Part shown: positions 1 through 46,104 of the stretch, in pieces
Position numbering within the stretch: position 1 is the first letter of the stretch
How the letters are laid out: each line of letters opens with the position of its first letter
The notes under the pieces: generated by a model
Told to the model about the DNA's origin: nothing
What the model saw: only the letters and a program-made list of their open reading frames with translations
Database searches by the model: none
Program-made: the position numbers and the translations under genes
Assembly (NCBI GenBank): GCA_937902985.1
Contig: CALFNG010000192.1
Coordinates: 1-46,104 of the forward strand
Source of the DNA: an uncultured Myxococcales bacterium
GTDB taxonomy: Bacteria > Myxococcota_A > Polyangia > Polyangiales > Polyangiaceae
DNA: 46,104 nt
Direction: 5' to 3'

Positions 1-56
1 GCCACGAATTCGCACGTTCCGCGTTCCCCCCTCAACCACTCCCCTGAACGGATACC

Positions 57-336
57 GTGTGAAGGGCGACATGAACAAGCCCGCATGTCGCTCCGCACAC
101 GTGGCAAGGGCGACATGAACAAGCCCGCATGTCGCTCCGCGCACGTGTGAAGGGCGACATGAACAAGCCCGCATGTCGCTCCGCACACGTGCGAAGAGCG
201 ACATGAACGAGCCCGCATGTCGCTCCGCACACGTGTGAAGGGCGACATGAACAAGCCCGCATGTCGCTCCACACACGTGGCAAGGGCGACATGAACAAGC
301 CCGCGTGTCGCTCCGCACACGTGTGAAGAGCGACAT
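57..336. repeat. 44-bp tandem repeat array, six full copies plus a partial one
   Basis: Six consecutive 44-bp units start at 57, 101, 145, 189, 233 and 277, and a truncated seventh starts at 321. Units differ by only a few bases. Each unit holds a dyad, GCGACATG - 10 nt - CATGTCGC, able to form an 8-bp stem, and most unit junctions form a second palindrome around CACGTG. More degenerate pieces of the same motif (cgacat ... tgtcgc) trail on to about 470. No coding signal is convincing here; the open frames that cross it are repetitive by construction. Confidence 0.93.
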
Positions 337-694
337 CGAGCCGTGGGTGACCTCGCCATAGCGCTCGAGCAAGGCGACATTCACCCTCTTGCTTGTCGCG
401 CGGCGCGCGTGGGCCGTGCGACATGCCGCGGCCACACGGGCGGCGAGCACGAGGGCGAGTGTCGCTTTTGGCTCGCAAGCCACGGAATCGACGGCGCTTG
501 TTCGCTCCTCGGGAGACGGGGTTCGCCGCGGCGATACCTGAAAGACAACCCTGACAGCGCGTCGGCGCGTCCTCCGGGTCCGCTCGACGTAGAGGCGAAC
601 GGTGGAGCCCACCGACCCTGGCAGAAAACCGCGGACCTTTGTCATGGCCGCTCGCTGCCGCCAGGCGCACAGTCATTGCCGAAAGGACGCGACC
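337..694. other. Gene-free stretch before the DJ-1/PfpI gene
   Basis: I see no convincing gene here. The first 130 bases hold decayed versions of the 44-bp repeat motif. The last bases hold an AAGGA ribosome-binding site at about 682-686 for the gene starting at 695. No clear promoter could be assigned. Confidence 0.5.
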
Positions 695-1382
695 ATGACT
701 CTGAACGTTGGGATGCTGCTCTTCCCGCGGCTGACGCAGCTCGATCTCACGGGCCCCTTCGAGGTGATGCACCGGATCCCGGGCGCCAAGGTGCACCTCG
801 TGTGGAAGGACCTCGAGCCGGTGCACGCCGACTCCGGCTTGGGCATCTTGCCGACGACGCGCATCGGCGACTGCCCGCCGCTCGACGTCGTGTTCGTGCC
901 CGGCGGCGGAGGGACCGCCGATCTGCTCGCCGACGACCCCGTGCTCGACTTTCTCGCCGCGCGAGGCAAGTCCGCGAAGTACGTCACCTCCGTGTGCACA
1001 GGCTCCCTCGTGCTCGGAGCGGCCGGGCTCCTCGACGGCTAACGACGCGACGACCCACTGGGCGTACACCGACGTGCTCCCCCTGTTCGGGGCGCGCCCC
1101 GTGCGCAAGCGCGTGGTCGTCGATCGCAGCCGCATCACCGCCGGCGGCGTGACAGCCGGTATCGACTTCGGGCTCCGCATCGCCGCCGAGACGGCAGGCG
1201 AAGACGTCGCGAAGAGCATCCAGCTCGCGATCGAATACGACCCCGACCCGCCCTTTCGCAGCGGCCACCCCGACGTCGCCGACCCCACCCTCGTCGCCCG
1301 GACGCGCGCCGCCTTGTCGAAGACCCTCGAGCAACGCAAAGCGCTCGCTGAAAAGTGCGTCGCACGACGGCGCGGTCACTAG
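695..1382 (+). pseudogene. DJ-1/PfpI family protein, isonitrile hydratase-like, frameshifted
   Basis: The first frame (ATG 695, AAGGA upstream) gives 115 residues of a DJ-1/PfpI protein and stops at 1040-1042. The rest of the family sequence (ATTHWAYTD onward) continues in the next frame to the stop at 1380-1382. Removing one A from the TAAC at about 1039-1042 would restore one protein of about 229 residues, the usual isonitrile hydratase (InhA) size. Asp17, the nucleophile Cys101 and Thr102 sit where the Pseudomonas InhA catalytic residues lie. InhA adds water to isonitriles to give N-substituted formamides. It is either a recent pseudogene or a one-base sequencing error. It converges on the nitrilase cluster, which also handles C-N triple bonds. 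Confidence 0.85.
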
Positions 1383-26673: not shown

Positions 26674-26690
26674 GGCACGGCCGCCCACGG

Positions 26691-26770
26691 CCACGCTCGG
26701 CCACGCTCGGCGACGCTCGGCGACGCTCGGTCACGCTCGGTCACGCTCGGTCACGCTCGGTCACGCTCGC
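26691..26770. repeat. 10-bp tandem repeat, eight copies
   Basis: Eight copies of a 10-bp unit (YSACGCTCGG) follow the FadJ-like stop. The variants come in blocks: two CCACGCTCGG, two CGACGCTCGG, then four ending or beginning TCACGCTCG. The last copy differs at its final base. The blocks look like successive duplications. The array lies 48 bases before the start of the S41 protease gene. Confidence 0.92.
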
Positions 26771-33552: not shown

Positions 33553-33594
33553 TCGAGCGTCGAGCGTCGAGCGTCGAGCGTCGAGCGTCGAGCC
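33553..33594. repeat. 7-bp tandem repeat TCGAGCG, about six copies
   Basis: Six units of TCGAGCG, the last one ending in C, lie in the 312-base gap between the divergent lipoprotein genes. The rest of this gap (33376-33552) has an AT-richer stretch around 33410-33450 that probably carries the promoter of the leftward lipoprotein-kinase operon; I could not fix its boxes. Confidence 0.85.
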
Positions 33595-36693: not shown

Positions 36694-36815
36694 GAGAAGA
36701 AAATCACGGGGCGGGCGAGACGGCGCGCGCAAGAGGCGCGAGCGAGAGCGAGCAAAGCGACACGGTGCGCAAGCACCCGGCACAGTCGATGCGATCGACC
36801 GGGCCCATGGACGAA

Positions 36816-36893
<78 letters not shown>

Positions 36894-37479
36894 GCACGGT
36901 CCTCTCTTGCGAGAGGGGACGCTTACGAGTCGCCCGGAGTCTTAGTCCGGCCTCGGCAGTCCGTCGAGAGTTTCTCGTCGGGTTTCCCCTCATCGGCGCT
37001 CTTTCACGCGACTTTCGGGTCGATTCCGTTCCGCTTCCGTTCCGGTTCGCGTCGCGGGTCACGAGGAGCGCACCAGCAAGCGCACCAAGCAGCTGGCCAA
37101 GGGGAACCGTTTCCGCTAAGCGAATGGGCATAGGGAACGCGCCGCGCCCCGCCTGGGGTCACGCGCCTACCCGCAAGGTTTTATGTCTCTCGCTTCCCGC
37201 GGTCCTGTCCTTTTTTCGAGGCGGCGTGGTGGGCGAGCTCAGTTCTAGTCGTCGCGACCCGGCGCTCACGCGCAGAAGGTGTCGCGGCGGCGCCCGAGGC
37301 AATCAGTTGCTCTGTTCCGGCTCGCGTGCGCCCTCATCCGATGACCGTCGTCGACCTCGTCGGCACGAGGCGTCGTCCAACGTCGATCGCCTGGCCCTCT
37401 GGGCCCCCCGCGATGGCGACCGGGTACCCGCGCGGCCTGCAAGCAGCTGTTGTGTACGGGCGGGAAAGCTCCGCACCGA
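36894..37479 (+). other. Gene-free region and probable long leader of the RNase E/G gene
   Basis: These 586 bases hold no convincing protein gene. A strong hairpin, GTCCTCTC-TTGCGA-GAGGGGAC, stands at 36899-36920, next to the SRP RNA start. A pyrimidine- and T-rich patch (GTCCTTTTTTCG) lies near 37204. RNase E genes in enterobacteria have long leaders used for autoregulation by mRNA cleavage, so a similar role is possible here, but no conserved leader structure was recognised. Confidence 0.4.
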
Positions 37480-40100: not shown

Positions 40101-40216
40101 TCGGCGGTTCCGAGCGGGGGGTCCCGAGGCGTAACGAACGGCTCATCCCGTGCGGTGGCCGTTGACACGCTGCAGGGTAAGGGCATGTTCCCTGGTTGAA
40201 TCCCCCGCCTGAAACC

Positions 40217-40360
40217 CACGCTTGAACCCACGCTTGAACCCACGCTTGAGCCCACGCTTGAACCCACGCTTGAACCCACGCTTGAACCCACGCTTGAGCC
40301 CACGCTTGAGCCCACGCTTGAGCCCACGCTTGAACCCACGCTTGTACACACGCTTGAACC
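40217..40360. repeat. 12-bp tandem repeat upstream of the superoxide dismutase gene
   Basis: Twelve perfect-length units of CACGCTTGARCC run from 40217 to 40360. Units 3, 7, 8 and 9 have G at the variable position, unit 11 ends TACA, the others read CACGCTTGAACC. The array ends 22 bases before the sod start codon and so lies in the leader or promoter. Read on the minus strand it would give Lys-Arg-Gly-Phe repeats, which I regard as a by-product of the DNA repeat. Confidence 0.95.
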
Positions 40361-40382: not shown

Positions 40383-40970
40383 ATGGCCTTCTCGCTACCC
40401 CCGCTTCCGTATGACAAGAACGCGCTCGCGCCGCATATCAGCGCGGAAACGCTCGAGTTTCACCACGGCAAGCATCATCAAGCATATGTCACGAACCTGA
40501 ACAAGCTGCTCGAAGGCAAGGCCGACGCGAACAAGAGCCTCGAAGAGGTCATTCTCTCGAGCGACGTCGGCGTCTTCAACAACGCCGCGCAGGTGTGGAA
40601 CCACACGTTCTACTGGAGCTCGATGAAGCCCAACGGCGGTGGATCGCCGAGCGGCGACCTCGCCGACGCGATCAAGCGCGACTTCGGCTCGGTCGAAGAG
40701 TTCGCGAAGGAGTTCAGCGAGGCCGGCGCGACTCAGTTCGGCTCTGGCTGGGCGTGGCTCGTGCTGAACAAGGACAAGAAGCTCGAGGTCACGAAGACCC
40801 CGAACGCCGACCTGCCGCTCAAGCACGGGCACAAGGCCCTGCTCACCATGGACGTGTGGGAGCACGCCTATTACATCGACTACCGAAACGCGCGCCCCAA
40901 GTACATCGAGACGTTCCTCAAGAGCCTCGTGAACTGGGACTTCGCGCTCGAGAACCTGAAGAAGGCGTGA
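40383..40970 (+). CDS. sodB: Superoxide dismutase, iron type
   Basis: This 195-residue protein is an Fe/Mn-family superoxide dismutase. The metal ligands are His27, His74, Asp157 and His161, matching E. coli SodB with an offset of one. Gln70 in NNAAQVWNH and the AGATQFGSGWAWL stretch mark the iron type. It turns superoxide into hydrogen peroxide and oxygen in the cytoplasm. AAGGAG stands eight bases before the ATG. The 12-bp repeat array directly upstream could affect its expression. Confidence 0.96.
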   Translation: MAFSLPPLPYDKNALAPHISAETLEFHHGKHHQAYVTNLNKLLEGKADANKSLEEVILSSDVGVFNNAAQVWNHTFYWSSMKPNGGGSPSGDLADAIKRDFGSVEEFAKEFSEAGATQFGSGWAWLVLNKDKKLEVTKTPNADLPLKHGHKALLTMDVWEHAYYIDYRNARPKYIETFLKSLVNWDFALENLKKA

Positions 40971-45819: not shown

Positions 45820-46104
45820 GCCCGATGCCGCTCAGTTAAGAGGAGAAGGAGATTGGCCGCGGAGGGTACGCGCCGGGAGACCGGCAGGAGGACGTAGGTG
45901 AGCGGAAGGTGAGTAGACATCGGAAGCAAGTCCTACCCCGGGAGGAATCCGCCCCCGGGAAGCCCAGACCTTGCGGAGCTGGGAGCGATCCCAGCGCCGA
46001 AGCGTAGGCGGGCCAGTGCGCGGGCCGGGCGATCGAGCCTCGACACGCTATTTTCGGAAGGAGCCGACGTCGTCCTCTGTGACGGAAGGCCATGGCGCCG
46101 CGGC
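45820..46104. other. Gene-free right edge with repeat fragment and GNRA hairpin
   Basis: No convincing gene is seen. At about 45849-45865 a piece GGAGATTGGCCGCGGAG matches the arms of the inverted repeat at 1383-1558. A perfect 7-bp stem capped by GCGA (GCTGGGA-GCGA-TCCCAGC) lies at 45978-45995, and other short GC stems (CCCGGG pairs near 45940-45960) surround it. GNRA loops suggest a folded RNA, perhaps the start of a mobile intron or other RNA, cut by the window edge. Confidence 0.4.

What the first reader, a model, noticed from the sequence alone, without database searches (positions are those of the whole stretch)
57..336. 44-bp tandem array in which every unit has two dyads
Six near-identical units, each with an 8-bp stem dyad (GCGACATG/CATGTCGC) and a CACGTG palindrome at the junction. 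The regular spacing of about 44 bp (four helical turns) would place bound proteins on one face of the DNA. It could be a partition, nucleoid-protein or regulator array, or a string of RNA hairpins. It is not CRISPR, since there are no unique spacers.
Basis: seen in the sequence. Interest (0 to 1): 0.5.

Follow-up and report, generated by a model that had tools for sequence, protein, structure and literature searches.

The report
Dispersed 44-bp dyad repeat array
The array is one locally expanded copy of a family of non-coding repeats scattered through one bacterial genome, whose short mirrored motif changes about three times more slowly than the DNA around it, which suggests that something reads it.

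Summary
The array is real (window 56-336, period 44, 6.4 copies, 91% match). Its left end is cut: window 1-55 is the end of a multi-copy insertion sequence. The array goes on at contig C418 behind an 8-bp target duplication; joined, the 44-bp phase is exact, with eight full units and a degenerate ninth. It is one copy of a dispersed family: eight loci in this genome share the 44-bp period and ordered unit types. Searches of other genomes gave no convincing copy (17, 28, 57), plasmids and phages none (32, 33). The GCGACAT/ATGTCGC arms differ at 6.3% of positions between homologous copies, against 19.2% elsewhere. The CACGTG dyad is not conserved outside this array. There is no covariation (34, 35), no match to the RAYT-type transposase family (36) and no unique spacers. 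Best reading: a lineage-specific, REP/BIME-like repeat whose half-sites are read as DNA by an unknown protein; unit number changes by slippage. Side lead: in five sampled relatives, 18 of 32 arrays called non-coding with period 30-60 have period 41-44.

The parts
1..55 (.). End of a multi-copy insertion sequence (IS66-like by its 8-bp duplication and GTAWCC end; recalled hallmarks, inferred). Terminal repeat at 44-55.
   Evidence: CTGAACGGWTAC found 9 times in the genome, 7 of them 42-43 bases from a contig end
56..63 (.). 8-bp target-site duplication CGTGTGAA; the other copy is beside the IS end on contig C418
   Evidence: the joined array keeps the 44-bp phase across the junction
56..336 (-). 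Tandem array of 44-bp units, expanded part of the element (strand = head-to-tail orientation used for all copies)
66..91 (.). dyad 1, GCGACATG-N10-CATGTCGC
110..135 (.). dyad 2
154..179 (.). dyad 3
198..223 (.). dyad 4
242..267 (.). dyad 5
286..311 (.). dyad 6 (one changed arm base)
312..475 (-). Head of the element: degenerate units in the same 44-bp register (unit B 330-355, unit A 374-399; outermost unit at a half step), shared with contigs C101, C255, C338

Best explanation
The array is the locally expanded middle of one copy of a lineage-specific, dispersed, non-coding repeat element. Shown: eight loci in this genome carry rows of 44-bp units, each a 26-bp dyad GCGACAT-N12-ATGTCGC (or a degenerate form of it) plus an 18-bp linker; homologous unit types follow each other in the same order in different copies; at this locus one unit is present in eight near-identical full copies and a degenerate ninth; the dyad arms differ about three times less between copies than loops and linkers, without covariation. 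Inferred: the ancestor was an ordered row of about eleven non-identical units; units are gained and lost by slippage or unequal exchange; the 7-bp half-sites are read as double-stranded DNA by an unknown sequence-specific protein, which gives a row of bound sites about four turns apart. I think it most likely that this protein is a host factor or the enzyme that once spread the element, so that the element works like a BIME without a RAYT.
For: Eight loci share unit order and 44-bp period. With half-site spacing left free at N2-30, all 15 exact dyads in the genome have a 10-base loop, and the reversed control has 0. In three independent locus pairs the arms differ at 14 of 223 positions and the rest at 91 of 473 (p 4e-6); the true phase ranks first of 44 phases. 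In all eight pairs: 37 of 477 against 210 of 998. In the head the right arm is identical in 12 of 12 units of four loci, while no left arm reads GCGACAT. Five of the eight loci have an end within about 50 bp of a stop codon. Two copies seem to cut genes: C207 follows the first 37 residues of a receiver-domain frame (weak Pfam match, 20.3 bits, below its cut-off), and the frame beside C128 holds only a late part of a lactonase-type propeller (profile 244-313 of 344).
Against: No binding protein or mobilising enzyme was identified. Element ends, target duplications and empty sites could not be shown. The eight pairs are not independent, and gene conversion among units could mimic constraint. Head units were located partly through the right arm. 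Single off-phase steps exist (one base in C207, four in C338, a 12-base step at the end of C255, half steps at the head). The neighbouring registers, shifted by one or two bases, also score low (0.33 for the true one, then 0.41 and 0.47). The family was found in one genome only, so its age and transfer are unknown.
Confidence: 0.5

Rival explanations
1. Neutral satellite-like DNA: a repeat scattered by recombination and expanded by slippage; the arms look conserved only because conversion between neighbouring units homogenises them.
For: Strong local homogenisation at this locus (eight near-identical full units) and an F-G-F-G duplication in C101.
Against: Loops and linkers, which conversion should also homogenise, differ about three times more between homologous copies; arms stay alike in units whose loops are unrelated.
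Confidence: 0.25
2. A string of RNA hairpins at gene ends that terminates transcription or protects 3' ends.
For: Very stable folds on both strands (z -12.0 and -10.2); five of eight copies close to stop codons.
Against: No compensatory change beyond shuffles; head units keep ATGTCGC without a pairing partner; no Rfam family at gathering score in the array.
Confidence: 0.15
3. A classical REP/BIME moved by a RAYT tyrosine transposase.
For: Palindromic units in composite arrays, most copies between genes where that was looked at.
Against: No Y1_Tnp match in the own genome, while the same search rings in 5 of 14 control genomes; the bases next to the dyads are TCC/GGA/AGG and similar, with no constant GTAG or CGTC; 28 dyads with both 6-base arms in the eight loci, not more than 100.
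Confidence: 0.05
4. A ParB/parS-like partition array built on CACGTG.
For: CACGTG in each of the six linkers that follow the dyads.
Against: Linker centre differs at 19 of 91 positions in the independent pairs, no slower than the background; the copies are scattered over eight places on nine contigs.
Confidence: 0.02

Closest known systems
REP / BIME elements (GTAG- and CGTC-tagged REPs, PMC3733652)
   Same: Extragenic palindromes, often downstream of genes, in composite arrays; CGTC REPs are reported there to lack a dedicated transposase (abstract and one section read).
   Different: No constant GTAG or CGTC tag, low copy number, 44-bp direct period, ordered non-identical units found as a set.
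REPINs and tandem REP arrays of Pseudomonas fluorescens (PMC3116915)
   Same: Palindromic repeats that also occur as regular tandem arrays (passages read, abstract in part).
   Different: Those belong to RAYT genomes and have 71-, 110- and 112/72-bp spacings; no Y1_Tnp gene was found here.
Iteron arrays of plasmid origins (recalled)
   Same: Direct repeats with a helical spacing that line up bound protein.
   Different: Eight scattered loci; inverted half-sites inside each unit. Replication genes beside the copies were not systematically looked for.

Membership tests
REP/BIME | extragenic imperfect palindrome of 20-40 bp | tested here: met
   26-bp dyads; five of eight loci have an end close to a stop codon; C207 and C128 seem to lie in gene remnants; genes around C446 were not examined
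REP/BIME | GTAG or CGTC motif at one end of the stem | tested here: not met
   bases flanking the dyads read in all copies, no constant GTAG or CGTC
REP/BIME | high copy number, usually more than 100 | tested here: not met
   28 dyads with both 6-base arms in 8 loci; only 150 of 12,949 first-look candidates were scored, so the count is a lower bound
REP/BIME with RAYT | RAYT (Y1 transposase) gene in the genome | tested here: not met
   0 matches to PF01797; genome 96% complete
CRISPR array | unique spacers between identical repeats | tested here: not met
   whole units repeat, 10-base loops shared between units
Structured RNA | compensatory base changes in the stems | tested here: not met
IS66-family insertion (interrupting element) | 8-bp target duplication | tested here: met
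   TTCACACG/CGTGTGAA
IS66-family insertion (interrupting element) | transposase of the family inside the same copy | tested here: inconclusive
   PF03050 has 9 matches in the genome, 7 over the cut-off, but the body of this copy is not on the contigs that carry these ends

The most novel reading that the evidence does not exclude
Genomes of this order carry a general class of non-coding tandem arrays with a preferred unit of about 42 bp (four turns; multiples of 21 bp), of unrelated sequence from array to array, because a common DNA-wrapping protein or copying process sets the length; the window array is one member in which the half-sites of the bound protein can still be seen. In regular-grid samples of five relatives (400 kb each), 18 of 32 arrays called non-coding with period 30-60 have period 41-44 (G062 4 of 7, G022 1 of 3, G033 4 of 9, G047 6 of 8, G079 3 of 5; p 7.5e-9 against a flat distribution; without multiples of three, 10 of 14, p 3.2e-6). 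The range 41-44 was chosen after the first four samples; G079 came later. Against it as something special to this order: the mixed control from other lineages also shows repeat distances of 21, 42 and 63 in non-coding DNA (six bins each), and G022 shows none at 41-44 there.
Probability: 0.15. Interest if true: 0.75.

Novelty: new variant of a known kind. Interest (0 to 1): 0.42.

Why it matters
A dispersed repeat with constrained half-sites and a 44-bp period, in a genome with no detected RAYT, is a clean handle for finding a new DNA-binding or mobilising protein in a group with very large genomes. If the 41-44 bp preference of non-coding arrays holds, it would tie array length to the DNA helix and hint at an unknown architectural protein or copying mechanism.

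Tried and rejected
Relatives by BLAST: with the C101 element, 49 of 116 genomes (the own one included) gave matches at E 0.01 or better. Outside the own genome the best is 2.9e-5 over 60 bases, and the listed matches cover 77 bases or less of 514. Many fall on one stretch that could encode LDELVK, so I take them as chance or coding. The exact dyad was found in 1 of 58 genomes, the own one. The 14-base linker pattern had 25 forward matches in the own genome; 7 of 187 others in the phylum had 1-2 each, taken as chance.

At most two lie in one stretch (128 and 217 bases apart), so these look like unrelated palindromes; only the 70 rows with the most neighbouring half-sites were read. Eight viral contigs with a single match each were not pursued. 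Plasmids and phages: no match at E 1e-5.

Rfam gave sub-threshold matches, nearly all microRNA-like hairpins (three; ten, one of them a weak cobalamin match at 12.9 bits). Weak model matches elsewhere in the genome (C500 at 20.8 bits and lower; C500 was fetched but read only by the tandem-repeat scan) and in relatives (up to 21.8 bits in 1.2 Mb; 20.4 bits in L235) are at noise level and were dropped. The G033 samples L325-L344 and the G079 sample were not searched with the model.

Empty site: the SNF2-helicase neighbour of the C101 copy has orthologues in relatives, but the methyltransferase gene of the other side was not found in the flanks (at most 1.5 kb) of the 11 loci held, so no clean empty site could be read.

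Palindromes as hallmark of the 41-44 bp class: longest perfect inverted repeat 5.56 against 4.65 in shuffles, only 3 of 18 units below p 0.05 (other periods: 5.07 against 4.65, 1 of 14), so dyads do not define the class. Control DNA of other lineages (0.87 Mb) held too few arrays called non-coding (two of period 30-60, none at 41-44; others at 63 and 84) to compare period distributions, and its repeat distances do show 21, 42 and 63. The gene calls behind 'non-coding' come from a crude codon-position GC script of my own. The own-genome sample was picked around family copies and is not in the count of 32.

Full report
Observation. The array is present as described: 56-336, period 44, 6.4 copies, 91% matches, no indels; 217 of 237 positions agree at lag 44. 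Six units carry the GCGACATG-N10-CATGTCGC dyad, five of them exactly, and CACGTG stands in each of the six linkers that follow them. The folds are far more stable than shuffled sequence.

Where it really ends. The window is contig C192 of an 8.3-Mb, 563-contig genome. Its first 55 bases are the end of a repeat found at other contig ends: CTGAACGGWTAC occurs nine times, seven of them 42-43 bases from a contig end. C418 starts with a second kind of end of that repeat, followed by the same kind of 44-bp array. Both sides carry TTCACACG/CGTGTGAA, an 8-bp target duplication, and joining them keeps the 44-bp phase exactly: six full units from the window, two from C418 and a degenerate ninth. The interrupting element is IS66-like by end sequence and duplication length (recalled hallmarks); IS66-type transposase domains exist in the genome (9 matches, 7 over the cut-off), but the body of this copy was not found beside these ends.

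A dispersed family. Further copies lie on C101, C128, C207, C255, C338, C365 and C446: eight loci with C192 and C418 counted as one. Arms with at most one mismatch fall on one 44-bp register in each copy, with these exceptions: one inserted base in C207, four in C338, a 12-base step at the end of C255, half-step head units in C255 and C192, and four stray one-mismatch sites inside loops. Loop and linker types come in the same order in different copies: head, A, B, then C, D, E, F, G, H, I, J and a tail, with truncations (read by eye; letters are mine). That an ancestor held the whole row is inference. One search scored only 150 of 12,949 first-look candidates, so further diverged copies may exist.

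Distribution. The exact dyad was found in 1 of 58 genomes, the own one. The linker-spanning pattern has 25 forward matches in the own genome and 1-2 in 7 of 187 other genomes of the phylum. BLAST with the C101 element gave no convincing match elsewhere, and plasmid and phage collections gave none. The relatives include single contigs of 16,040,666 and 11,388,132 bases, which I recall as the sizes of Minicystis rosea and Chondromyces crocatus, so the host is probably a member of the Polyangiaceae (inference from recall).

Constraint. Between homologous copies, arm positions differ at 14 of 223 and other positions at 91 of 473 in three independent pairs (p 4e-6). In all eight pairs, which are not independent, the counts are 37 of 477 and 210 of 998. 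The true register gives the lowest ratio of all 44, with the neighbouring registers next. The CACGTG columns differ at 19 of 91 positions, no slower than the rest. Base-pair counts show no covariation beyond shuffles. In the head the right arm ATGTCGC is identical in 12 of 12 units of four loci, while the left arm never reads GCGACAT; since units were located partly by that arm, this is supporting evidence only. Together this points to a sequence read as DNA and not to a hairpin kept by pairing.

Context. C101: 16 bases after the stop of a methyltransferase gene, and facing the 3' end of a SNF2-helicase gene. C255: about 40 bases after a thioredoxin-domain gene. C338: within about ten bases of the stop of a response-regulator-like frame, with a KdpD-type kinase gene beyond it. 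C365 and C207: about 13 and 25 bases from the 3' ends of neighbouring genes. The C207 copy also follows the first 37 residues of a receiver-domain frame, and the frame beside C128 keeps only a late part of a lactonase-type propeller, so two copies seem to cut genes. At the window locus the head side faces the 5' end of a DJ-1/PfpI gene. Genes around C446 were not examined. Gene calls come from a simple codon-position GC script, backed by Pfam for several genes.

Mechanism and rivals. The best-supported account is a REP/BIME-like, non-autonomous repeat whose half-sites are bound by an unknown protein and whose unit number changes by slippage. It is not filed as a REP: the tag motif, the copy number and the RAYT gene were tested and not met. 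Neutral repeat DNA homogenised by conversion is the main rival, then RNA hairpins.

A wider pattern. C446 carries, directly before its family copy, a second 44-bp array of different sequence. In regular samples of five relatives (G062, G022, G033, G047, G079; 400 kb each) 18 of 32 arrays called non-coding with period 30-60 have period 41-44. Repeat distances in non-coding DNA peak at 41-42 and 82-84 in G047, at 21, 42, 63, 84, 105 and 126 in G033 and, more weakly, at 42 in G062; G022 shows none at 41-44, and the mixed control from other lineages also shows 21, 42 and 63 (G079 was not in that count). The range was chosen after the first samples, the non-coding calls are crude, and outgroup arrays were too few, so I treat this as a lead. 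Paper searches for such arrays in this group or with helical spacing found nothing on point (listings only, 8 of 91 papers shown; passages of PMC6344855).

Noticed in passing
window 602-1382: DJ-1/PfpI-family gene whose reading frame appears broken near 1042; the Pfam match of the first part stops at profile position 115 of 165.
   Followed up: partly
window 45927-46104: Group II intron domain match (RF02005, 77.1 bits) running off the contig end.
   Followed up: no
window 36810-36896: Bacterial small SRP RNA on the - strand (RF00169).
   Followed up: no
window 40196-40360: 12-bp tandem repeat TTGAACCCACGC, 13.6 copies, shortly before an ATG at 40383.
   Followed up: no
window 26688-26769 and 33553-33593: 10-bp (CGGCCACGCT, 8.2 copies) and 7-bp (TCGAGCG, 5.9 copies) tandem repeats.
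   Followed up: no
L270 1-310 (C446): Second 44-bp tandem array of different sequence directly beside a copy of the family.
   Followed up: partly
L153 1994-2590 (C128): Frame that overlaps the C128 copy holds only a late part of a lactonase-type propeller.
   Followed up: partly
L245-L264, L285-L364: Preferred period 41-44 bp of tandem arrays called non-coding in five relatives.
   Followed up: partly
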